Of a stretch of 38,123 nt of DNA, positions 18,551 through 36,201 are shown piece by piece; the first letter of the stretch is position 1, and each line of letters starts with the position of its first letter. The DNA is from Christensenellaceae bacterium. GTDB lineage: Bacteria; Bacillota; Clostridia; Christensenellales; Aristaeellaceae. The translations under genes were made by a program, and so were the position numbers. Below the pieces are notes generated by a model. The model saw nothing but the letters and a program-made list of their open reading frames with translations. It had not been told where the DNA came from and made no database searches. The stretch spans positions 1 through 38,123 of the forward strand of contig JAFLST010000027.1 of assembly GCA_022510815.1 (NCBI GenBank). The letters are read 5' to 3'.

Positions 18551-19906
18551 TTAATCTTTTTTGTGTTCCCGGGCATAGATCGCCATGGCGCACTCGAGGC
18601 GCTTGCGCTCCATCTGGCATTCCATGTCATAGGGCTGGGAGATGTCGCCGTGGAAGGCCTCGGCGTTGGCCGCGCAGCCGCCGGAGCAGTAGAATCTCGC
18701 CCAGCACTCGCGGCACTTCTCCTTGTGCAGCACGTCGTTGGCGGCGAACTTCTGCTGAATGTTCCGGTCAAAGCTGCCGTCCAGCACGCTGCCCATGCGG
18801 TAGCCCTCGCGGCCTACGAACTGGTGGCAGGGGTAGATGTCGCCGTCGGGGGTCACCGCGACATACTCGTTGCCCGCGCCGCAGCCGGTCAGACGCTTGC
18901 GCAGGCAGGGGCCGCCCTGCAGATCCACCATGAAGTGGAAGAAGTTGAACCACTCGCCGTTTGCGCGCCTGTCGAGATAGATCTGCGCCAGCCGGTCGTA
19001 CTCAGCCTTGATTTCCGGCAGATCCTCTTCCCGCAGCGCGTACTCGCAGTCGGGACTGGTGACCACCGGCTCCACGGAAAGCTGCTCAAAGCCCTCGTCG
19101 GCGAGGAACAGCACGTCGTTGCCAAAGTCCTTGTTGTAGCCCGTGAAGGTGCCGCGGATATAGTATTCCTTGTCGCCGCGCTTCTTCGCGAATTCCTTGG
19201 CCTTCTCGGCGATGATCGCGTAGCTGCCCTTGCCGTTGACTGTGGGGCGCATGCGGTCATGAACCTCGGGCCGGCCGTCGATGGAGATGACCACGTTGCC
19301 CATCTCCCGGTTCAGGAAGTCGATGATCTCATCGTTGAGCAGCACGCAGTTGGTGGTGGTGGTGAACTTGAAGCGCTTGTTCTTCTCCTTCTCGATGGAA
19401 CGGCCGTACTCCACCAGCCGCTTGATTACCGGGAAGTTCATCAGCGGTTCGCCGCCGAAGAAGTCGACCTCCAGATGCACGCGGTTGCCGCTGTGCTCGA
19501 CCAGCCAGTCCAGCGCAGCCTTGCCGACCTCGAAGGGCAGCAGCTTCCGCTCGCCCATGCAGAAATCGCCCGTCGCCGCGAAGCAATACTTGCAGCGCAG
19601 GTTGCAGTCATGGGCCGCGTGCAGGCACATCGCCTTGACCACGCCAGGCTCCTGAAGCTGCCTGACGTCGTCATAATTGTCCGGGGCGTTCAGCGCGCCG
19701 ATCTCCTCGAGCTGCCGGAGCTCCGTGATGACCTCGTCCAGCTCCTCCGCGGCGTACTTTTCCGACAGCTCAGCCTTGATCTCTTCCGCCGTTTTATCGT
19801 TCCACAGGGACAGCACGTCATAGGCCAGCTCGTCCACGGCATGTACCGCGCCGCTGCCAACATCCAGCAGCATCGGCTGTCCCACAGCCTTAAAAGTGTG
19901 TATCAT
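18551..19906 (-). CDS. scfB: SCIFF peptide maturase, radical SAM/SPASM enzyme
   Basis: A 451-residue radical SAM enzyme that should install thioether bridges in the SCIFF peptide encoded just upstream. An N-terminal peptide-recognition region (about residues 1-85) precedes the CNLRCKYC motif (Cys101, 105, 108) that binds the SAM-cleaving cluster. The C-terminal SPASM region has many cysteines (GCGAGNEYVAVTPDGDIYPC, then CRECWARFYCSGGC) for auxiliary clusters. The start at 19906 follows AAGGAGG; the frame is open further up without a ribosome site. The SCIFF precursor ends 186 bases upstream on the same strand. This pairing is nearly universal in Clostridia. Confidence 0.95.
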   Translation of the reverse strand: MIHTFKAVGQPMLLDVGSGAVHAVDELAYDVLSLWNDKTAEEIKAELSEKYAAEELDEVITELRQLEEIGALNAPDNYDDVRQLQEPGVVKAMCLHAAHDCNLRCKYCFAATGDFCMGERKLLPFEVGKAALDWLVEHSGNRVHLEVDFFGGEPLMNFPVIKRLVEYGRSIEKEKNKRFKFTTTTNCVLLNDEIIDFLNREMGNVVISIDGRPEVHDRMRPTVNGKGSYAIIAEKAKEFAKKRGDKEYYIRGTFTGYNKDFGNDVLFLADEGFEQLSVEPVVTSPDCEYALREEDLPEIKAEYDRLAQIYLDRRANGEWFNFFHFMVDLQGGPCLRKRLTGCGAGNEYVAVTPDGDIYPCHQFVGREGYRMGSVLDGSFDRNIQQKFAANDVLHKEKCRECWARFYCSGGCAANAEAFHGDISQPYDMECQMERKRLECAMAIYAREHKKD

Positions 19907-19953
19907 GGGTGTTCCTCCTTTGGTCAGGGTGGGCCGTCCTCCGACAACCCCTG

Positions 19954-19980
19954 CCAGAGAGCCATTGGGCCTCTGGGCTC
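19954..19980 (-). other. Alternative stems in the leader of the SCIFF maturase gene
   Basis: CCAGAG (19954-19959) can pair with CTCTGG (19971-19976), or GAGCC (19959-19963) with GGCTC (19976-19980), but not both at once. Whether this controls maturase expression is unknown. Confidence 0.25.
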
Positions 19981-20041
19981 CCTCCTTGCGACAGAGTACG
20001 CTGCCTTCTGGCAAAATACTTCCGCGTGAAAGAAAATCTAT

Positions 20042-20092: not shown

Positions 20093-20287
20093 TTACTTGA
20101 CAGTGCGGCGAACCTTGCCCTCATTGCCGTTCAGGACGTCCTTGTTCTCCTTGTTGGCGCAGGACTGATTAGCCACGGTGCAGCTGGTCTTGCAAGCGCT
20201 CTGGCAGGAAGCCTGACACTCGCCGCAGCCGCCATGGACGAGGGAATCCTTCAGGCAGGGGGACTGAATGGTTTCAATATGCTTCAT
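20093..20287 (-). CDS. scfA: SCIFF ribosomal peptide precursor (ranthipeptide), extended form
   Basis: A 64-residue precursor with the SCIFF core GGCGECQASCQSACKTSC then TVANQSC. The usual six cysteines are at 21, 24, 28, 32, 36 and 43. This one has a seventh, Cys11, in the leader part, and about 21 residues after the last core cysteine, where typical SCIFF peptides stop soon after it. The maturase gene follows on the same strand. In the family, cysteines become linked to other residues by thioethers; the final product here is unknown. The start follows GGAGG, and a good promoter lies upstream. The family assignment is firm; the meaning of the extension is open. Confidence 0.94.
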   Translation of the reverse strand: MKHIETIQSPCLKDSLVHGGCGECQASCQSACKTSCTVANQSCANKENKDVLNGNEGKVRRTVK

Positions 20288-20326
20288 TGGCTGGTTCCTC
20301 CGTTCGTGTTCTGGTCTACACAAGGC

Positions 20327-20356
20327 ATTATACACCATATGCCCCGGCAAAGTCAA
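20327..20356 (-). promoter_or_regulatory. Promoter of the SCIFF precursor gene
   Basis: On the minus strand TTGACT (20356-20351), 18 bases, TATAAT (20332-20327). Confidence 0.8.
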
Positions 20357-20376
20357 TATCAAGGACGCAGGCGGCG

Positions 20377-28109: not shown

Positions 28110-28655
28110 TCAGATTTTCTCCGCCAGCGCAGCGGCCTGAGCGACGCCGTCGGTCTTGTCGATGTCACCCTCGTTCAGCACGCCGGGGATCAGCACCTCG
28201 CCGACCATCTTCCACTTAAGCAGCGCCGCCGAGCGCTCGATCGGGATGCGCACGCCGTCCATGACGGTCATGTCTTCTTCTTCGCAGCAGGTGATGAGCG
28301 CGCACTCCTTGCCCGCGACGTCCCTCCCGGCGATGCAGAAGGAGAAGAGCCGGTCGATCACGCCCTTGACCTGCGCGGGGATGGAGTACCAGTAGACAGG
28401 CGTGACGAAGACCACGGTGTCCGCCGCCTCGATGACCGGGGCGATGGCGTTGAAGTCGTCGTCAAAGGAGCAGGCCTTGCCGGTGGAGAAGCAGGTCTGG
28501 CAGGCGCGGCATCCGCCCACCTTGCTCAGGGCCGCGTCAAAGCGGGTGACGGTGTGCCCCTTGGCCTCGGCGGCCTTGATGAAAGCCTCGGTCATGGCGA
28601 AGCTGTTGCCCTTCCTGCGCGGGCTGCCGGTGATCACAACGATGTTCTTGCTCAT
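28110..28655 (-). CDS. NADPH-dependent FMN reductase/iron-sulfur-flavoprotein-like protein
   Basis: A 181-residue flavodoxin-fold protein. The FMN phosphate loop is at the N terminus (VITGSPRRKGNSFAM). A cysteine group, CRACQTCFSTGKACSFDDDF (about residues 49-68), resembles the cluster-binding motif of iron-sulfur flavoproteins. TPVYWYSIPAQVKGVIDRLF is the family's flavin-contact segment. It probably reduces quinones, disulfides or metal compounds with NAD(P)H. The start at 28655 follows GGGAG; the open frame further upstream crosses the promoter. It is divergent from an HxlR regulator, a common arrangement in which the regulator controls the enzyme. Confidence 0.88.
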   Translation of the reverse strand: MSKNIVVITGSPRRKGNSFAMTEAFIKAAEAKGHTVTRFDAALSKVGGCRACQTCFSTGKACSFDDDFNAIAPVIEAADTVVFVTPVYWYSIPAQVKGVIDRLFSFCIAGRDVAGKECALITCCEEEDMTVMDGVRIPIERSAALLKWKMVGEVLIPGVLNEGDIDKTDGVAQAAALAEKI

Positions 28656-28698
28656 CGGATTCACTCCCTCAGATGGATTGACTTTTTGGGTCGGCTTC

Positions 28699-28727
28699 AT
28701 TATAATCAGGCGTGATTGATATGGCAA
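28699..28727 (-). promoter_or_regulatory. Promoter of the flavoprotein gene
   Basis: On the minus strand TTGCCA (28727-28722), 17 bases, TATAAT (28704-28699). Confidence 0.8.
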
Positions 28728-28742
28728 GTACGCACATTGAAG

Positions 28743-28751
28743 TGATATACT
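28743..28751 (+). promoter_or_regulatory. Extended -10 promoter of the HxlR gene
   Basis: TGA followed by TATACT (28746-28751); no good -35 box is seen. It lies about 16 bases from the opposing promoter. Confidence 0.5.
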
Positions 28752-28772
28752 AACCTGAAGGGAAGTGCCTTG

Positions 28773-29120
28773 ATGGACATGCAATGCATCCGGGAGAGCA
28801 GGCTGGAGGAAACGGGGTTTCACTACACGATGTCGCTGATACAGGGCAAATACAAGATGACGGTTCTCTACGCGCTGATGGAGTTCCGCGTGGTGCGGTT
28901 CAATGAGCTCAAGCGCTACCTGAACGGCATCTCCTTCAAGACGCTGAGCCTGACGCTCAAGGAGTTAGAGGCGGACGGACTGGTGCACCGGGAGGAGTAT
29001 CCGCAGATTCCGCCGAAGGTGGAGTACAGCCTGACGGAGCGCGGACAGTCGCTGATCCCGATTCTCGACCAGCTCTGCGCGTGGGGCGACGCGCACCGCC
29101 CGCCGCGGATCAGCGGGTGA
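28773..29120 (+). CDS. HxlR family transcriptional regulator
   Basis: A 115-residue winged-helix regulator. The HxlR signature is clear: LIQGKYKMTVLYALMEF, RFNELKRYLNGISFKTLSLT and LEADGLVHREEYPQIPPKVE. The N terminus has a cysteine at residue 5, the position used for redox sensing in several HxlR proteins. With the divergent flavoprotein it probably forms a regulator-target pair reacting to electrophiles or disulfide stress; this is inferred from context. The ATG at 28773 follows AAGGG. Its stop overlaps the 3' end of the convergent MATE gene by 11 bases. Confidence 0.9.
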   Translation: MDMQCIRESRLEETGFHYTMSLIQGKYKMTVLYALMEFRVVRFNELKRYLNGISFKTLSLTLKELEADGLVHREEYPQIPPKVEYSLTERGQSLIPILDQLCAWGDAHRPPRISG

Positions 29121-30474
29121 CGGAAGCGGTCAGGTCGAGCTTGCGCCAGAAGGGGATGAACAGCGCCAAAGCGGCGAACATTGCCAGCAGATCGGCGATG
29201 GGGGTCGCCCACGCGATGCCTCCCGCGCCCAGCAGAGCGTTCATCAGGAACATGAAGGGCACGTCCAGCCCGCCCTTGCGCAGCAGGGACAGGATGGTTG
29301 GCTGCAGCTTGCGCCCCGTGGCCTGAAAGACCGTGATGAGCATGATGGTCACGGATACGGTGGGGCAGGTGAGACAGATCACCCGCAGGAAGTGCCGCCC
29401 GAAGGCGACGGTGGCGTCGTCGTCGATAAACAGCCGGGACACGGGCGCGGCCCCCGCAAACAGCAGCACAGTACCCGCGCAGGCGATGACGAGGCTGTAG
29501 GTCAGCGCGGTTCGGATGGCGGCTCGCATGCGGGCCGCGTTTTTTGCTGCGTAGTTGTAGCCGATCAGCGGCAGCACGCCCTGCGTCATGCCTCCGGCGA
29601 TGGCGAAGGCCACCATGTCGATCTTCTTGGCGACGCCCATGCCCGCGATGGCCTCGCTGGCGTAGGAGGCGACCAGCCGGTTCAGGATAACGTTGGAGAG
29701 GATGCTCATGCCGTTCATCACAAAGCTGGGGAAGCCCACCAGCAGGATTTCCGCGGGGATGCGCCGCCGGAGGGTGTAGTGCCGCGGGTGCAGGGAGATG
29801 ACGGTAGCCCCGTGCTTCCTGCGCAGCAGCAGGAGGAAATAGCCCATGGCGGCGAGGTTGGAGAGCATGGTCGCAATGGCTGCGCCGGTGATGCCCAGCC
29901 GGAAAGCAAAGATGAACAGCGGGTCCAGCAGGATGTTGAGCACCCCGCCCATGCCGATGCCGAAGCTGGCCTGCTTGGCGTATCCCTCGGCTCTGATCAG
30001 GTGCGCCAGCTCAGCGCTCAGGACGGTGGGCAGCGCGCCGACGGTGATGGTCCAGAAGACGTAACGGTACAGCGCGTCATAGGTGTCCGCTCCTGCGCCG
30101 ATGGCCGGGAGAATCGCCGGGCGGAAGATCATCATGATCAGCCCGTAGAGCAGTGCCGCAGCGGCGCCCGTCCACAGGCTGAAGGATGCGCACTGCCGGG
30201 CCTTGTCCGGGTCGCCTGTGCCGAGGCTGCGGGACACGAGGCTCGCGCCTCCGATGCCGAACAGGTTGGCAATGCCTGTCAGCAGGATGAAGGGCGGCAT
30301 GGCAAGGGTGGCGGCGGCGACCTGCGCGGGATCGCCCAACTGACCGATGAAGAAGGTGTCCGCCACATTGTAGACGACGGTGATGAGCTGGCTGATGACG
30401 GTGGGCACCGCAAGGGTCAGCACGGCGCGGCGGATCGGCGCGCGCTCGAAGAGTTCTGTATTGATGGCTGTCAT
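29110..30474 (-). CDS. MATE family efflux transporter
   Basis: A 454-residue integral membrane protein with about twelve membrane segments in two repeats, typical of MATE exporters, which use Na+ or H+ to expel drugs and metabolites. The N-terminal repeat shows VPTVISQLITVVYNVADTFF and IGGASLVSRSLGTGD. The second repeat has GVLPLIGYNYAAKN. The substrate cannot be told. The second ATG (30474) has a better-placed GGGTG site than the first (30480). It is transcribed alone from a good promoter, with no clear terminator before the convergent HxlR gene. Confidence 0.92.
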   Translation of the reverse strand: MTAINTELFERAPIRRAVLTLAVPTVISQLITVVYNVADTFFIGQLGDPAQVAAATLAMPPFILLTGIANLFGIGGASLVSRSLGTGDPDKARQCASFSLWTGAAAALLYGLIMMIFRPAILPAIGAGADTYDALYRYVFWTITVGALPTVLSAELAHLIRAEGYAKQASFGIGMGGVLNILLDPLFIFAFRLGITGAAIATMLSNLAAMGYFLLLLRRKHGATVISLHPRHYTLRRRIPAEILLVGFPSFVMNGMSILSNVILNRLVASYASEAIAGMGVAKKIDMVAFAIAGGMTQGVLPLIGYNYAAKNAARMRAAIRTALTYSLVIACAGTVLLFAGAAPVSRLFIDDDATVAFGRHFLRVICLTCPTVSVTIMLITVFQATGRKLQPTILSLLRKGGLDVPFMFLMNALLGAGGIAWATPIADLLAMFAALALFIPFWRKLDLTASVTR

Positions 30475-30492
30475 AAGCATTCACCCGCCTCT

Positions 30493-30576: not shown

Positions 30577-30605
30577 TTGACAAATGATTCCTGCTGCCGT
30601 ATTAT
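30577..30605 (+). promoter_or_regulatory. Promoter of the peroxidase operon
   Basis: TTGACA (30577-30582), 17 bases, then TATTAT (30600-30605). The -10 box overlaps the inverted repeat of the candidate OhrR operator. Confidence 0.88.
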
Positions 30606-30625
30606 TAAATTGTAAGCAATTAAAT
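30604..30625 (+). promoter_or_regulatory. Candidate OhrR operator
   Basis: An inverted repeat with arms ATTAAATTG (30604-30612) and CAATTAAAT (30617-30625), one mismatch, 4-base spacer. It resembles the AATTGTA/CAATT repeats of OhrR-regulated promoters as I recall them. The position over the -10 box and start site fits repression. An OhrR-type gene is encoded in the same operon. Confidence 0.6.
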
Positions 30626-30657
30626 GTTGCAAAATCTGTCGAATGGAGGCATGCTTG

Positions 30658-31203
30658 ATGAATGTCTACGAATTCACCGTGACGGCCCGGGATGGCAGCG
30701 AGGTGGGTCTGTCCGATTATCAGGGCAAGGTGCTGCTGATTGTCAACACAGCCACGGGCTGCGGCTTCACGCCCCAGTACAAGGAGCTGCAGGAGCTCTA
30801 CGAGGCCCATCACGCGGACGGGCTGGAAATTCTCGACTTCCCCTGCAACCAGTTCGGCGAGCAGGCCCCCGGCAGCGACGAGGAGATTCACACCTTCTGC
30901 GCGGGGCGCTTCGGCATCACCTTCCCGCAGTTCGCCAAGGTGGACGTGAACGGCGACCATGCCATCCCGCTGTTCCGGTGGCTGACGGCGAACACGAAGT
31001 TCGAGGGCTTTGATAAGCTGCATCCCATCGGCATGCTGCTGAGCACAATGCTCAAGAAGCAAGATAAGAACTACAAGGAGTCCAGCAGCGTCAAGTGGAA
31101 CTTCACCAAGTTCCTTATCGGCCGCGACGGCGAGATCATTGCCCGCTTTGAGCCTACCGCGAACATGAAGAGGGTGAAGGCCGCGGTTGAGGAGGCGCTC
31201 TGA
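30658..31203 (+). CDS. Glutathione peroxidase family protein (thiol peroxidase)
   Basis: A 181-residue peroxidase that reduces hydroperoxides. The catalytic Cys35 is in NTATGCGFT. The second signature, FPCNQFGEQAPG, holds the Gln (about residue 65), and WNFTKFLIG the Trp147 and Asn148 of the catalytic tetrad. Cys81 (HTFCAGRFG) is in the place of the resolving cysteine, so the enzyme probably uses thioredoxin rather than glutathione. The start at 30658 has GGAGG 8 bases upstream; the ATG at 30643 lies ahead of it. It is the first gene of a five-gene unit and is separated from the next gene by 1 base. Confidence 0.93.
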   Translation: MNVYEFTVTARDGSEVGLSDYQGKVLLIVNTATGCGFTPQYKELQELYEAHHADGLEILDFPCNQFGEQAPGSDEEIHTFCAGRFGITFPQFAKVDVNGDHAIPLFRWLTANTKFEGFDKLHPIGMLLSTMLKKQDKNYKESSSVKWNFTKFLIGRDGEIIARFEPTANMKRVKAAVEEAL

Positions 31204-31204
31204 T

Positions 31205-32326
31205 ATGCCGGAAGCGTTTGATCTCGAACGGTATCTGACCGGCGGTGTGGAGCAGATTGTCAAGGGTCTGGTGAAGGGCGCGGCGTTTCATCCGCGGGCA
31301 GGCCTGTTCATGGCGCAGTACGCGCTGGCCAGCAAGCGGGCGTCGGCCTTGCGGCAGGATGCGGAGGAGCGGGGCGAGCACATCCCGCCGTTCCTCATCG
31401 CCAGCATCACCAGCCTGTGCAACCTGCACTGCGCGGGGTGCTATGCCCGGTCGCTGGATACCTGCGTGGACGGCGTGCCCACGGAGCAGATGACAGGCGA
31501 CGATTGGCTGCGGGTCTTCACAGAGGCCCGGGAGCTGGGCATCGGGTTCATCCTGTTAGCGGGCGGCGAGCCGATGGTGCGGCGGGACGTGCTGGAGGCC
31601 GCCGGGCAGGTGCCGGAAATCCTTTTCCCCATCTTCACCAACGGTACGCTGATGACCGGTGACATGCTCAATCTGCTGGAGCGCAGGCGGAACCTTGCGC
31701 CGGTGATGAGCATTGAAGGCGGCGAAACGGAGACCGACCGCCGGCGCGGCAAGGGCGTCTGGGCGCAGGTCAGCGAGGCCATGGCGCAGATGAGGCGCAG
31801 GCATATCCTCTTTGGCGCGTCGGTGACGGTGACCACAGAGAATCTGGCGGAGGTCACTTCGGAGGCTTTCCTGCGCGGCATTGCCGGGATGGGCTGCAAG
31901 GCGGTCGTCTTTGTGGAATATGTCCCCACCGAGGACGGCACGGACAGCCTCGCGCTGGACGATGCGGGCAGAGAGACCCTCGCGCGGAAGCTGGACCTGC
32001 TCCGGCAGCAGGAAGATCTGCCGCTGATGATTTCCTTCCCCGGTGATGAAAAGAACTCCGGCGGCTGTCTCGCGGCGGGGCGCGGGTTCTTCCACATCAA
32101 TTCCCATGGCGGCGCGGAGCCCTGTCCCTTCTCGCCCTACTCGGACTTCAACGTGAAGGAGCACTCCCTGCGGGAAGCTCTGCAGTCGAAGCTCTTCCGG
32201 GCGCTGCGGGACGAGGGCCTGCTCATGGAGGAGCATGACGGCGGCTGCGTGCTGTTCCGGCAGCGGCGGCAGGTGGAGGCGCTGCTTGGCGCGGTGACAC
32301 AGAAAAGCGAAAAGGAGATATCGTGA
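31205..32326 (+). CDS. Radical SAM protein of unassigned function
   Basis: A 373-residue radical SAM protein with the CNLHCAGC motif (Cys72, 76, 79) and the following GGEPMVRRDVL, FTNGTLMTG and MSIEGGETETDRRRG stretches of the SAM-binding barrel. The C-terminal part has a short SPASM-like group of cysteines (GGCLAAGRGFFHINSHGG, then EPCPFSPYSD, and GGCVLFRQ). The first ~60 residues are a helical region. The function is not known. It lies between glutathione peroxidase and a flavin-binding-type protein and shares an OhrR-linked promoter, so a role in peroxide or thiol metabolism, or in modifying a small molecule made under such stress, is plausible but unproven. Confidence 0.88.
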   Translation: MPEAFDLERYLTGGVEQIVKGLVKGAAFHPRAGLFMAQYALASKRASALRQDAEERGEHIPPFLIASITSLCNLHCAGCYARSLDTCVDGVPTEQMTGDDWLRVFTEARELGIGFILLAGGEPMVRRDVLEAAGQVPEILFPIFTNGTLMTGDMLNLLERRRNLAPVMSIEGGETETDRRRGKGVWAQVSEAMAQMRRRHILFGASVTVTTENLAEVTSEAFLRGIAGMGCKAVVFVEYVPTEDGTDSLALDDAGRETLARKLDLLRQQEDLPLMISFPGDEKNSGGCLAAGRGFFHINSHGGAEPCPFSPYSDFNVKEHSLREALQSKLFRALRDEGLLMEEHDGGCVLFRQRRQVEALLGAVTQKSEKEIS

Positions 32327-32718
32327 TGAACGAGGTCTATGAATTCCTCAAGAAGTGCGGAACCTACTATCTGGCGACGGCAGAGGGCGATCAGCCCCGG
32401 GTGCGGCCCTTCGTCACCATCGACCTGTTTGAGGGCAGGCTGTACATCCAGACGGGCAGGGTCAAGCCTGTGGCAAATCAGATGAAGAAGAATCCCAAGG
32501 TGGAGCTCTGCGCCATGAACGGAGGCGAGTGGATCCGCGTGACGGCTGAGGCGGTGCTGGATGAGCGCGTCGAGGCGCAGGAGCACATGCTGGCGGCGTA
32601 TCCGTCCCTGCAGGCGATGTACAGGCCCGGCGACGGCAACACTGAGGTGTACTGGCTGCGGAATGGCACCGCGCAGATCTGCTCCTTCGCGGCGGAGCCC
32701 AAGTCGGTTCAGTTTTGA
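32326..32718 (+). CDS. Pyridoxamine 5'-phosphate oxidase family protein
   Basis: A 130-residue split-barrel protein of the PNPOx-like superfamily. It starts MNEVYEFLKKCGTYYLATAE, followed by QPRVRPFVTIDLFEGRLYIQ, the usual flavin-binding strands. It is shorter than true pyridoxamine phosphate oxidase, so it is more likely a small FMN- or F420-type reductase or a haem-binding relative. Its ATG overlaps the stop of the radical SAM gene by one base, and AAGGAGA lies upstream. It belongs to the peroxidase operon. Confidence 0.85.
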   Translation: MNEVYEFLKKCGTYYLATAEGDQPRVRPFVTIDLFEGRLYIQTGRVKPVANQMKKNPKVELCAMNGGEWIRVTAEAVLDERVEAQEHMLAAYPSLQAMYRPGDGNTEVYWLRNGTAQICSFAAEPKSVQF

Positions 32719-32787
32719 CCTGCCGGCAAAGGTGTGATACAGTACAAGGGAAGGGACCGGATGAATCCGGCTGAGTGGAGGTCTTGC

Positions 32788-33237
32788 ATGGACAACCGTA
32801 CCTATGACGCGCTGAAGCTGGAAAATCAGCTCTGTTTTCCCCTGTATGCCTGCTCCCGGGAGATCATCCGGCAGTACAAGCCCTTTCTGGATGAGCTTCA
32901 GCTGACCTACACCCAGTATATCGTGATGATGGTACTCTGGGAGCGGCGCTCGGTCACGGTGAAGGAGCTGGGGGACTGCCTGTATCTGGACTCGGGCACG
33001 CTGACGCCGCTGCTCAAGAAGATGGAGGCGAAGGGGCTGCTGACCCGCGTCCGGTCGACGAAGGATGAGCGCAACCTTATCGTGACCATCACGGCAGCGG
33101 GCGAGGCGCTCAGGAAGCAGGCAATTCGTGTGCCCGCGCTGATGGCGCAATGCTCGCCGCTGGAGCCGCAGGAGGCCGCGACGCTTTATCGCCTCCTGTA
33201 TAAGCTGCTCAGGCAGGATCAGGCTCCGGGCGAATGA
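32788..33237 (+). CDS. OhrR-type MarR family regulator
   Basis: A 149-residue winged-helix regulator of the OhrR branch. The N-terminal LENQLCFPLYACSREIIRQY carries the peroxide-sensing Cys16 in the OhrR context, and LTYTQYIVMMVLWE and GTLTPLLKKMEAKGLLTRVR are the family's core and recognition helix. OhrR proteins repress peroxide-defence genes until their cysteine is oxidised by organic hydroperoxides. GGAGG lies 6 bases before the ATG. It is the fourth gene of an operon led by a peroxidase whose promoter bears an OhrR-like operator, so it probably represses its own operon. Confidence 0.92.
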   Translation: MDNRTYDALKLENQLCFPLYACSREIIRQYKPFLDELQLTYTQYIVMMVLWERRSVTVKELGDCLYLDSGTLTPLLKKMEAKGLLTRVRSTKDERNLIVTITAAGEALRKQAIRVPALMAQCSPLEPQEAATLYRLLYKLLRQDQAPGE

Positions 33238-33253
33238 ACCGGAGGGATATGCG

Positions 33254-33976
33254 ATGGAACTCAAGGATATGATCGGGCGGCGCAAGTCCGTCCGCAGCTA
33301 TGCAAGCGAACCGGTGACCGGAGAAACGCTGGCGGAGATCGAAGCCTTTATCGCGCGGATGAAGCCGCTGGACCCGAGTCTCCGCGTCGGCTGGGAGATC
33401 GTGCCGGGCAATAAGGTGAAGTGCATTCTGCCGTGGAAGGCGCCGCAGCTCGTTGCCATCTATGCCGGGGACGAGGAAGGCGCGCTGGAGAACGCGGGCT
33501 TCCTGTTCCAGCAGCTCGATCTGTATTTGCAGGGCCGGGGGATCGGCGCCTGCTGGCTGGGCATGGGCAAGCCGGAGCAGCAGCTTGCCGCAAAGGACGG
33601 CCTGCCCTTCTGCATACTGCTGGCCTTTGGCTATCCCACAGGCGAAGCGCTGCGGGATAGCATGGCGGAGTTCAAGCGCAAGGAGCTGGGAGAGATCGCG
33701 GACGAGCCTGACAGGCGGCTTGAGGCAGCCCGGCTCGCGCCCTCCAGCGTGAACAGCCAGCCGTGGTACTTTACCCATGAGGAGGGCGTAATCCATGTGT
33801 GGCGCGCGATTCGCGGCGGGCTGATGCGTAAGGCCTTTGAGAAGATGAACCGCATTGACATGGGCATCGCGCTCGCGCATCTCTACGCGGCAAATCCGGA
33901 AGGCTTCCGCTTCTTCAGGGCGGAGCAGCCGCCGGAATTAAAGGGATATGTTTATACGGGCAGCGTTGTCTTATAA
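33254..33976 (+). CDS. Nitroreductase family protein
   Basis: A 240-residue FMN-dependent reductase of the nitroreductase fold. RRKSVRSYASEPV is the N-terminal FMN phosphate motif. GRGIGACWLGMG is the helix-loop of the family, and SSVNSQPWYFTHEEG marks the C-terminal half. It probably reduces quinones or nitro compounds with NAD(P)H; the substrate is unknown. It follows the OhrR-type gene after 16 bases with GGAGG at the start and closes the five-gene operon before a terminator. An OhrR-controlled flavin reductase fits a peroxide-stress role. Confidence 0.88.
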   Translation: MELKDMIGRRKSVRSYASEPVTGETLAEIEAFIARMKPLDPSLRVGWEIVPGNKVKCILPWKAPQLVAIYAGDEEGALENAGFLFQQLDLYLQGRGIGACWLGMGKPEQQLAAKDGLPFCILLAFGYPTGEALRDSMAEFKRKELGEIADEPDRRLEAARLAPSSVNSQPWYFTHEEGVIHVWRAIRGGLMRKAFEKMNRIDMGIALAHLYAANPEGFRFFRAEQPPELKGYVYTGSVVL

Positions 33977-34230: not shown

Positions 34231-35997
34231 TTATTCATCCGTCTTCACTAATTGTACAGTGCGGTTTCTTCCGTTATATTTGGCAATGTACAGGGCCTTA
34301 TCCACCCTTGTATAAAGCGTGTCGGCAGTTTCGCCCTTCACCGCCTGCGTCACGCCAAGGCTCACCGTTTGGCAACCGGCGGTTTCATAGGATATGGACG
34401 AAAACTCTGTCCGTATCCTTTCCGCGAGCTCCACGGCCCTTTCCATAGGAACGTTGGGCAGCATCACCATGAATTCCTCGCCGCCCCAACGGCCGACAGC
34501 GGAGGATTCCACCTCGCCGATCACCTTGCGGAGGACGTCGGAGATGGTCATGATCACGCGGTCGCCTTCCTTGTGACCATAGACATCGTTGACCCTCTTG
34601 AAGTTGTCAATATCCAGCATGATCAGGGACAGGTCGCAGGAGGTTTCCTTCTGCGCAAGCTCTTCCACATTGCTGCGAATTCTCTTCTCGATCTCCGCGC
34701 GGTTATACAGTTTGGTCAGACCGTCCGTAATGGAGGCGATCGCAAGCTCTGCGGTGGTGGTCTCGATGAAGGAGACAAAGCGCCGGATGAGCGGCAGTCT
34801 GTCGCTTTCAATGTTGTCCAGCTTGCTGTCAGAAATATTGACAATCTCGCTGTTCTTCGGCTCGCCCTCTCTCATGGCCGCAATGACCAGCGTAACATTG
34901 AAATTGAGCATATCGCCGCCGATGCGGATAAACTCGCCATGCGTGTAGAAGCCCGCCGTGGGCGCTACGCTGCGGAACAGGATCGTCTCATCGCTGATGT
35001 TCTCGTCACCCCAGAAGGCTCTCCGGGCCGCGCAGGAAAAGGTCTGGATGATCTCCGGCTGGAAATTGGCAATGTTTTGGCCGTCGTGCCGGATGCTGCT
35101 GAGAATGGTCGCGGGATCACCGTAAGCAAGCCGGACGGTGGCATTTTCCACCATGTCGGAGGACATCACAAGGGAGTCGTCGTCATTCACGGCGAGGGGG
35201 CAGCGCAGCAGGTCAATGCCGCTGTGATCCATAAAGAGCGGAAATTCCAAGGTGTTGGAAAAGAATTTGTCTGATCGCCTGATGCTCAAGAACTTCTGAT
35301 AGACGTTAAACGCAGGCTCCCCGTTCAGCTCATACAGGATCTCCTTGTCCGCCTTCGTGACGGTGAATCGCCTCGTCAGCGGCTTCCAGCCGGAAATGAA
35401 CGTGCTGTATACATGGAAGTCGCTGCCGCCCAGAAGCAGGAAAACGATGCCATGCTCCAGGAAACCGTTTCCCTTTGAAAAGACTGCCGCTGTTTCATCG
35501 TCCATGTCAGGGTTGAAAGCGCCGCCGCCGAATACCTGAATGTCACTTCTCAGGCTGGTCATTTCGTCGCAGAACTCCCGCATGGACATATCCATGATCG
35601 TGGCGTGCATTTCCACCGCGCCTACCCATGGGTTGGCGTCGCAATACTCCTTCAGTACGCGTACATCTTCCTTCACGTTTTCCTCGAGGAAAGGGAATTG
35701 CAGCACCTTGATCTGCGTGGTTTCACGCTCAAAAACGGTGCATGTGAGAATGATGTTCGCGTCCGTCAGAGCGCCGTCGATAATGTTCGCGTTCGAGGTG
35801 CAGCCCAGATAGAGGGCGTCGGGCATCTTCTCGTCCAGCAGATCGCAGACGTGCCGGATATGCCCCAGATCCATATCATCTGAGTAAATCCTGAACAATG
35901 TGGCATAGGCCGCGTTCTCCGCGCGCCATTGTTCAATTTTTCCCAAATCCTCGCAGAATGTCCAGTCATTCTTGTACACGATCTGAAACTGCTTCAT
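34231..35997 (-). CDS. FIST-domain diguanylate cyclase
   Basis: A 588-residue soluble protein that should make cyclic di-GMP. The N-terminal FIST and FIST_C sensor regions (about residues 30-380; LYLGCTSNANIIDGALTDAN, VFGGGAFNPDMDDETAAVF) may bind small ligands such as amino acids. The GGDEF domain has DGLTKLYNRAEIEKRI, LDIDNFKRVND and the catalytic GGEEF loop (505-509), so it should be active. An inhibitory RxxD site before the loop is not seen. The start at 35997 follows GGAGG; the longer frame upstream runs through the promoter. It is divergent from an EAL phosphodiesterase, giving a synthesis-and-breakdown pair. Confidence 0.9.
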   Translation of the reverse strand: MKQFQIVYKNDWTFCEDLGKIEQWRAENAAYATLFRIYSDDMDLGHIRHVCDLLDEKMPDALYLGCTSNANIIDGALTDANIILTCTVFERETTQIKVLQFPFLEENVKEDVRVLKEYCDANPWVGAVEMHATIMDMSMREFCDEMTSLRSDIQVFGGGAFNPDMDDETAAVFSKGNGFLEHGIVFLLLGGSDFHVYSTFISGWKPLTRRFTVTKADKEILYELNGEPAFNVYQKFLSIRRSDKFFSNTLEFPLFMDHSGIDLLRCPLAVNDDDSLVMSSDMVENATVRLAYGDPATILSSIRHDGQNIANFQPEIIQTFSCAARRAFWGDENISDETILFRSVAPTAGFYTHGEFIRIGGDMLNFNVTLVIAAMREGEPKNSEIVNISDSKLDNIESDRLPLIRRFVSFIETTTAELAIASITDGLTKLYNRAEIEKRIRSNVEELAQKETSCDLSLIMLDIDNFKRVNDVYGHKEGDRVIMTISDVLRKVIGEVESSAVGRWGGEEFMVMLPNVPMERAVELAERIRTEFSSISYETAGCQTVSLGVTQAVKGETADTLYTRVDKALYIAKYNGRNRTVQLVKTDE

Positions 35998-36063
35998 GCC
36001 AATCCGCCTCCATATGGAAAACCCATATACTTCCAATTCATCAATACAAACTAAATCATAGTC

Positions 36064-36092
36064 ATTATAACCGCCTGAAACCAGATTTGCAA
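36064..36092 (-). promoter_or_regulatory. Promoter of the FIST-GGDEF gene
   Basis: On the minus strand TTGCAA (36092-36087), 17 bases, TATAAT (36069-36064). No cyclic-di-GMP riboswitch was recognised in the short leader. Confidence 0.75.
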
Positions 36093-36201
36093 GAGGGAAT
36101 ATCCATCGGCCGGCATTTTGCCGGGCACGCGATGCCATGGGCATGCGCCTGTGAAAACAGGATTTTCACAAAGGGCGCTGAGAGAATCGGTCGAATAGTG
36201 C

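What the first reader, a model, noticed from the sequence alone, without database searches (positions are those of the whole stretch)
30577..33976. OhrR-linked operon joining a peroxidase with a radical SAM enzyme
Glutathione peroxidase, radical SAM protein, PNPOx-like protein, OhrR-type regulator and nitroreductase are packed with gaps of 1 to 69 bases between one promoter and one terminator. A radical SAM enzyme under peroxide control is unexpected, since its Fe-S cluster is peroxide-sensitive. It may make or repair something needed in peroxide stress. This is the best candidate for a new system in the window.
Basis: partly seen in the sequence, partly recalled or inferred. Interest (0 to 1): 0.75.

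Follow-up and report, generated by a model that had tools for sequence, protein, structure and literature searches.

The report
Peroxide-controlled operon with radical SAM enzyme
A bacterium related to gut and rumen anaerobes seems to keep a peroxide-destroying enzyme and an uncharacterised radical SAM enzyme under one organic-peroxide switch, and related bacteria repeatedly bring the same kinds of genes together in different orders, which suggests an unstudied step in how anaerobes deal with organic peroxides.

Summary
Five co-directional genes (Cys-type glutathione peroxidase, radical SAM, PNPOx-like, OhrR-type repressor, TM1586-type nitroreductase) lie at 30643-33976 behind a near-consensus promoter and before a strong hairpin. 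The -10 overlaps an OhrR box (12 of 14 positions); the genome has one other site as good, at a gene's 3' end. The radical SAM link recurs: of 37 family genomes (of 150) with the orthologue, 9 have it within 5 kb of OhrR (0.15 expected) and 11 of GPx (0.18 expected), always co-directional; a paralogous family shows 0 of 35 for both. In 104 dereplicated loci gene order is shuffled, and flavodoxin, nitroreductase and HxlR regulators also recur, though 62 of 104 show no such partner. PNPOx and this nitroreductase subtype are local additions. The radical SAM family is unnamed; its substrate is unknown and no conserved RiPP precursor was found. I rate it a new variant of the known OhrR-peroxidase operon, with an uncharacterised, possibly damage-related radical SAM enzyme. 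Peroxide response was not testable.

The parts
30577..30605 (+). sigma-70-type promoter TTGACA-17-TATTAT
   Evidence: 11 of 12 consensus positions
30600..30614 (+). OhrR box TATTATTAAATTGTA overlapping the -10; a weaker second repeat follows to 30629
   Evidence: 12 of 14 positions of TACAATTNAATTGTA (consensus quoted in a passage of PMC6034001)
30643..31203 (+). glutathione-peroxidase-type peroxidase (C40, C68, C86 in 21, 20 and 21 of 21 aligned GPx proteins of linked loci, not dereplicated)
31205..32326 (+). radical SAM protein of an unnamed family, 373 aa; C72, C76, C79 (CX3CX2C) and C288, C307, C348 invariant in 21 aligned members
32326..32718 (+). PNPOx-like protein, 130 aa
   Evidence: PNPOx_N 36.9 bits, cut-off 28.1
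32715..32743 (+). possible internal promoter before ohrR
   Evidence: 9 of 12, TG before the second hexamer; consensus match only
32788..33237 (+). OhrR-type MarR repressor, 149 aa; C16 (reactive by alignment) and C122 (candidate resolving)
33254..33976 (+). nitroreductase of the TM1586 type, 240 aa
   Evidence: TM1586_NiRdase 147.4 bits
33983..34011 (.). terminator-like hairpin, usable from both strands
   Evidence: z -5.8
29110..30480 (-). divergent MATE family transporter (neighbour, not part of the operon)
28776..29120 (+). HxlR-type regulator resembling RrpA (neighbour)
   Evidence: RrpA model 149 bits, cut-off 185 not reached
28110..28655 (-). FMN-reductase/NAD(P)H-oxidoreductase-like flavoprotein (neighbour)
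   Evidence: best 47.2 bits, below all cut-offs

Best explanation
This is an OhrR-repressed organic-hydroperoxide response operon of a probable anaerobe of the Bacillota (placed by its named relatives). Reduced OhrR sits on the box over the -10 and keeps the unit off. Organic hydroperoxides oxidise C16, which then probably forms a disulfide with C122 of the partner subunit; OhrR leaves and the unit is transcribed. The thiol peroxidase reduces the hydroperoxide to an alcohol. The radical SAM protein, a twitch-like enzyme with one radical SAM cluster and probably one auxiliary cluster held by C288, C307 and C348, acts as an accessory enzyme on a product or a target of the damage and draws electrons from flavodoxin-type partners that recur beside it; in the window the nitroreductase or another flavoprotein may serve. 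Shown by sequence: the genes, box, promoter, hairpin, conserved cysteines and recurrent linkage. Inferred: repression, induction, disulfide switch, peroxidase activity, auxiliary cluster, electron supply. The substrate of the radical SAM enzyme is not known; damage from lipid hydroperoxides is my first guess, on weak grounds.
For: OhrR: best solved match over residues 3-142; C16 in 24 of 24 and C122 in 22 of 24 OhrR proteins of linked loci, window included, not dereplicated. Box: 2 places in the 2.74-Mb genome within 2 mismatches (reversed control pattern 0); one is this promoter, the other overlaps the stop codon of a 136-aa ORF just before a hairpin. In dereplicated relatives, directons with rSAM plus OhrR or GPx have a box of at least 12 of 14 in 7 of 20 (two of the seven are close Ruminococcus flavefaciens copies), against a mean of 0.017 in 60 shuffles and 0 of 20 for the reversed motif; other directons 6 of 407; before dereplication 9 of 25 against 6 of 447. 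Linkage: 9 rSAM-OhrR pairs (0.15 expected) and 11 rSAM-GPx pairs (0.18 expected) within 5 kb among 38 matches in 37 of 150 genomes, all same strand; the paralogous radical SAM family 0 and 0 of 35. Linked state: fewest changes 17 on a quick tree of 104, at least 9 forced by starred branches. OhrR-GPx is the common core: 59 pairs in 49 genomes, all same strand. Partners in 104 loci: OhrR 20, GPx 18, nitroreductase 13, Flavodoxin_5 protein 10, divergent HxlR 9.
Against: 62 of 104 dereplicated loci show none of the redox partners tested; in 21 of these 62 one side of the gene has under 2 kb of sequence. Such cut loci also inflate the count of changes on the tree, and changes may be losses as well as gains. 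Only 9 of 28 genomes that carry both rSAM and OhrR, and 11 of 30 with rSAM and GPx, have them within 5 kb. The 80 named loci were the best 80 of 545 candidates, so biased to close relatives. rSAM directons without OhrR or GPx show no convincing box (at least 12 of 14: 1 of 70; at least 11: 10 of 70, shuffle mean 3.2 and maximum 8, reversed motif 6 of 70). In a phylum-wide draw, 14 of 14 loci under 50% identity have no OhrR, GPx or nitroreductase hit. The model has low confidence at residues 73-92, the radical SAM cluster loop. Expression, binding and activity were not tested.
Confidence: 0.65

Rival explanations
1. The radical SAM gene is a passenger: OhrR-GPx is the real unit, and the radical SAM, PNPOx and nitroreductase genes are local insertions with unrelated work, kept because the shared promoter suits them.
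For: OhrR-GPx pairs are found in 49 genomes but rSAM near OhrR in 9; 62 of 104 rSAM loci lack the tested partners; the exact order was seen only in the window; PNPOx and the window's NR type are rarely linked.
Against: Repeated same-strand joining in different orders, at least 9 changes forced by starred branches, about 60 times the expectation, and 0 of 35 for a paralogous radical SAM family in the same genomes. Divergent HxlR regulators also stand beside it in 9 of 104 (one of them tested as RrpA-like).
Confidence: 0.2
2. The radical SAM enzyme serves detoxification of nitro- or quinone-type electrophiles rather than peroxides; OhrR and HxlR sense electrophiles and the flavoproteins are the main effectors.
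For: Nitroreductases, flavodoxins and FMN reductases recur; RrpA of Campylobacter jejuni activates mdaB, a quinone reductase gene (start of the abstract of PMC8765430 in the listing).
Against: OhrR (20 of 104) and the peroxidase GPx (18 of 104) are the most frequent partners, and the box is of the OhrR type.
Confidence: 0.12
3. The radical SAM enzyme is a RiPP maturase that makes a peptide under peroxide stress.
For: Several of the nearest folds are peptide or protein maturases (SuiB, SkfB, PqqE, anSME), and the window holds another radical SAM gene that is a SCIFF peptide maturase with its precursor.
Against: No convincing precursor: of 18 groups of small frames found in 4 or more of 104 loci, 17 overlap GPx, OhrR, nitroreductase, flavodoxin or metallo-beta-lactamase genes; one antisense group of 5 loci, at or near the start of the radical SAM gene, is not explained so; 23 groups of 3 loci were not inspected. 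None of the 25 NCBIfam families shown of 46 reaches its cut-off. Only three C-terminal cysteines are invariant.
Confidence: 0.07

Closest known systems
OhrR-ohr operons (Bacillus subtilis, Agrobacterium and others)
   Same: OhrR-type repressor with the reactive cysteine; a box like TACAATTNAATTGTA at the promoter (consensus from a passage of PMC6034001)
   Different: No Ohr-type peroxidase in the unit; a GPx takes its place, and radical SAM, PNPOx-like and nitroreductase genes are added
OspR-gpx of Pseudomonas aeruginosa
   Same: An OhrR homologue that controls a glutathione peroxidase gene and responds to organic hydroperoxides (start of the abstract of PMC4999210 in the listing)
   Different: No radical SAM gene is mentioned in that abstract start; the paper itself was not read
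Twitch/SPASM radical SAM enzymes (SuiB, SkfB, PqqE, anSME, MoaA)
   Same: Radical SAM fold and CX3CX2C (Foldseek E 5.2e-13 and query TM 0.62 for SuiB)
   Different: 11-20% identity in the 50 rows shown, three invariant C-terminal cysteines, no known substrate, no cut-off reached among the 25 of 46 NCBIfam families shown
RrpA/RrpB and other HxlR regulators
   Same: An RrpA-like HxlR gene lies about 1.5 kb upstream in the window; HxlR genes stand divergent to the radical SAM gene in 9 of 104 relatives
   Different: Below the curated cut-offs in the two proteins tested; not part of this operon

Membership tests
OhrR repressors | overall similarity to a characterised OhrR | tested here: met
   1z91 E 2.9e-41, 2pfb (OhrR) E 4.3e-33; that these are the Bacillus subtilis and Xanthomonas proteins is recalled
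OhrR repressors | reactive N-terminal cysteine | tested here: met
   C16 in 24 of 24; it aligns with a Ser of 1z91 (a Cys-to-Ser construct, recalled) and with the Cys of 2pfb
OhrR repressors | resolving cysteine of the 2-Cys subgroup (Cys127 in Xanthomonas, passage of PMC5201249) | tested here: inconclusive
   C122 in 22 of 24; one column off in the pairwise alignment; disulfide not tested
OhrR repressors | NCBIfam OhrR model at its curated cut-off | tested here: not met
   NF052638 (TransRegOhrRVib) 169.1 bits, cut-off 200
OhrR repressors | OhrR box at the controlled promoter | tested here: met
   12 of 14 positions, over the -10
OhrR repressors | release from DNA by organic hydroperoxide | not testable with these tools
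   needs a binding assay or a reporter
Glutathione peroxidases | GSHPx domain and a conserved Cys (or Sec) at the active site | tested here: met
   activity not testable; no NCBIfam equivalog cut-off reached
Radical SAM superfamily | CX3CX2C and Radical_SAM domain above cut-off | tested here: met
SPASM radical SAM enzymes | SPASM domain above cut-off with its full set of cysteines (seven, recalled) | tested here: not met
   21.0 bits, cut-off 21.5; three invariant C-terminal cysteines
Twitch radical SAM enzymes | half-SPASM with one auxiliary cluster | tested here: inconclusive
   three cysteines and a similar fold; cluster not shown
RiPP maturases | linked precursor peptide | tested here: not met
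   none convincing among 2949 small frames around 104 loci; groups in only 3 loci not inspected

The most novel reading that the evidence does not exclude
Anaerobes of the Bacillota carry a dedicated radical SAM enzyme of organic-hydroperoxide defence, switched by OhrR or by HxlR (RrpA-like) regulators, that removes or repairs a lesion left by lipid peroxides; the Pr6Pr membrane-protein fusion (L155) and the OhrR-GPx-Pr6Pr unit of G006 would point to oxidised or esterified membrane fatty acids as the substrate.
Probability: 0.25. Interest if true: 0.8.

Novelty: new variant of a known kind. Interest (0 to 1): 0.55.

Why it matters
Radical SAM enzymes are usually thought of as victims of oxidants. 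A family repeatedly wired to peroxide sensors in anaerobes would mean that radical chemistry is used in recovery from organic peroxides, and would point to a function for an unnamed enzyme family found in many gut and rumen Bacillota. It makes the question testable: one box, one operon, one family with defined cysteines.

Tried and rejected
RiPP reading: no convincing precursor. Known radical SAM equivalogs (AhbD, NirJ, PqqE and others): all 25 families shown of 46 fall far below cut-off. PNPOx and nitroreductase as core parts: rejected by rarity. OhrR box at unlinked rSAM genes: not convincing. Papers: four searches for the combination gave 2, 1, 10 and 12 papers; from titles and abstract starts none describes this unit; passages of one (PMC12288474) were unrelated. 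This covers only the held open-access library. Pr6Pr: no paper in that library and no convincing solved relative (best E 0.13); its kinship to eukaryotic AIG1/FAR-17a hydrolases of fatty-acid esters is recalled and untested. Against a strong Pr6Pr link: of 20 family genomes with a Pr6Pr match, 1 has it near OhrR and GPx and 1 near a radical SAM fragment. The fold search gives no substrate.

Rows dropped and choices: I split the 75 matches by hand into orthologues (38, 47% identity or more, fragments included) and the paralogous family (35, 32-39%; one of these, G106 at 39%, may be intermediate); two rows that I had not placed are not in either list. G121 has a truncated OhrR beside rSAM at a contig end that is not counted in the 9. 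L125 (no radical SAM ORF kept by my gene caller) left 112 of 113 loci; a length limit of 330 aa left 111 and a crude 93% identity filter 104. One search used only directons with 200 or more bases in the upstream stretch. Gene calling was a simple ORF script, so directon limits are approximate, and the shuffles keep dinucleotides only approximately. A1 holds the window and 20 of the 29 other loci. Only one HxlR of the relatives was tested for RrpA likeness.
Full report
What is there. The window holds five co-directional genes: a Cys-type glutathione peroxidase (30643-31203), a radical SAM protein (31205-32326), a PNPOx-like protein (32326-32718), an OhrR-type MarR regulator (32788-33237) and a TM1586-type nitroreductase (33254-33976). 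Spacings are 1, -1 (overlap), 69 and 16 bases. A near-consensus promoter lies at 30577-30605 and a strong hairpin follows the last gene. A weaker promoter-like site lies before ohrR, so a separate ohrR transcript is possible.

Control. The regulator's best solved relative is 1z91, an organic hydroperoxide resistance regulator (B. subtilis OhrR by recall). C16 is present in 24 of 24 OhrR proteins of linked loci, the window included, and C122 in 22 of 24 (not dereplicated), which suggests the 2-Cys type. The -10 hexamer overlaps TATTATTAAATTGTA, 12 of 14 matches to the OhrR box consensus TACAATTNAATTGTA (passage of PMC6034001). Against a 30-base operator that I recalled, the site scores 23 of 30 on one strand and 21 on the other, while the next best place in the window scores 17. 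In the genome (95% complete) two places come within two mismatches, with 0 for the reversed control: this one, and one that overlaps the stop codon of a 136-aa ORF just before a hairpin, with a gene facing it beyond, so not a promoter by its position. In dereplicated relatives, directons that hold the radical SAM gene with OhrR or GPx carry a box of at least 12 of 14 in 7 of 20 cases (mean 0.017 in 60 shuffles, reversed motif 0 of 20), other directons in 6 of 407 (reversed motif 1 of 407), and radical SAM directons without OhrR or GPx in 1 of 70. Two of the seven are close R. flavefaciens copies. So OhrR control is well supported where OhrR or GPx is linked, and not shown where neither is.

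Is the radical SAM link real? Among 150 genomes of the family, 37 carry an orthologue or a piece of one (38 matches at 47% identity or more); 9 are within 5 kb of an OhrR gene and 11 of a GPx gene, all on the same strand, against 0.15 and 0.18 expected (the expectation assumes 2.8 Mb a genome). Twelve of 37 genomes have either. A second radical SAM family of 32-39% identity, 35 genes in 29 of the same 150 genomes, has 0 of either. Genomes with the orthologue also carry GPx (30 of 37 against 41 of 113) and OhrR (28 of 37 against 36 of 113) more often, not corrected for kinship. In 112 loci with flanks the order of radical SAM, OhrR, GPx and nitroreductase genes varies. After dereplication, 104 loci: OhrR in 20, GPx 18, nitroreductase 13, a Flavodoxin_5 protein 10, divergent HxlR 9, and none of the redox partners tested in 62, of which 21 have under 2 kb on one side of the gene. 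On a quick tree of these 104, linkage to OhrR or GPx (24 of 104) needs at least 17 changes, 9 forced by starred branches; the label is clustered (shuffle mean 22, 1 of 500 as low), as inheritance within clades would give. Cut contigs inflate this count, and it cannot tell gain from loss. In a phylum-wide draw of 398 genomes, 19 including the window's own have a relative at E 1e-80; of the 18 others fetched, 2 have OhrR and a nitroreductase beside it, 1 is fused to Pr6Pr, 1 more above 50% identity shows nothing, and 14 of 14 below 50% show no OhrR, GPx or nitroreductase hit (one has an FMN-reductase-like hit 1.9 kb away).

What varies. OhrR-GPx is the core (59 pairs in 49 genomes). PNPOx (near OhrR in 4 of 150 genomes, the window's included) and the window's nitroreductase type (the window's genome only) are local additions. 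Some loci have a flavodoxin directly beside the radical SAM gene, a plausible electron donor (inference).

The radical SAM family. 21 aligned members share C72, C76, C79 and C288, C307, C348. Pfam SPASM falls just under its cut-off (21.0 against 21.5). The AlphaFold model (mean pLDDT 77.6, under 50 at residues 73-92) resembles SuiB, SkfB, viperin, PqqE, anSME and MoaA, which speaks for a twitch/SPASM-like enzyme and not for a substrate. No convincing precursor peptide sits beside it. One relative carries a 587-aa natural fusion of a Pr6Pr membrane protein to it (L155; Pr6Pr model 55.9 bits, cut-off 30). Separate Pr6Pr genes stand in its directon in 6 loci (4 of 104 after dereplication), and in G006 Pr6Pr follows OhrR-GPx where no orthologue was found. 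But of 20 family genomes with a Pr6Pr match, only that one has it near OhrR or GPx, and one near a radical SAM fragment. Kinship of Pr6Pr to AIG1-type hydrolases of fatty-acid esters is recalled and untested; it is the only hint towards lipid.

Mechanism. See Best explanation: hydroperoxide oxidises OhrR, the unit is made, GPx reduces the peroxide, the radical SAM enzyme handles a product or lesion. The last step is inference.

Novelty. OhrR-type control of a peroxidase is known, also of gpx (OspR; abstract start of PMC4999210). In four searches of the held library I saw no paper on the radical SAM partner, judged from listings. I call it a new variant of a known kind, with an unnamed enzyme family as the interesting part.

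Noticed in passing
window 18551-20014 (-) and 20093-20362 (-): A SCIFF peptide maturase (TIGR03974, 664.6 bits, cut-off 425) with a Cys-rich SCIFF-like precursor ORF upstream, named by eye. Ordinary.
   Followed up: partly
window 28110-29120: An RrpA-like HxlR regulator next to an FMN-reductase-like gene and a MATE transporter, directly upstream of the operon: a second redox-type unit within 2.5 kb.
   Followed up: partly
window 34231-36144 (-): A sensor region resembling NosP (56.5 bits, below cut-off) joined to a GGDEF domain (133.7 bits).
   Followed up: no
L155:1498-3261 (-): Natural fusion of a Pr6Pr family membrane protein to the radical SAM protein, 587 aa.
   Followed up: partly
L144:7264-8655 (-), L145:6727-8169 (+): A related radical SAM family of about 460-480 aa in these two loci (32-39% identity over 35 matches), with no member within 5 kb of OhrR or GPx.
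   Followed up: partly
L046, L056, L083 (and in part L096): Upstream stretches of radical SAM directons that face a divergent HxlR gene share TATAAT..CATTATAGCAGG, possibly the HxlR operator (seen in the listing).
   Followed up: no
L151:1501-1515: The genome's second OhrR-box-like site lies between convergent genes beside a hairpin; the facing gene's visible end looks like rubrerythrin by eye.
   Followed up: partly
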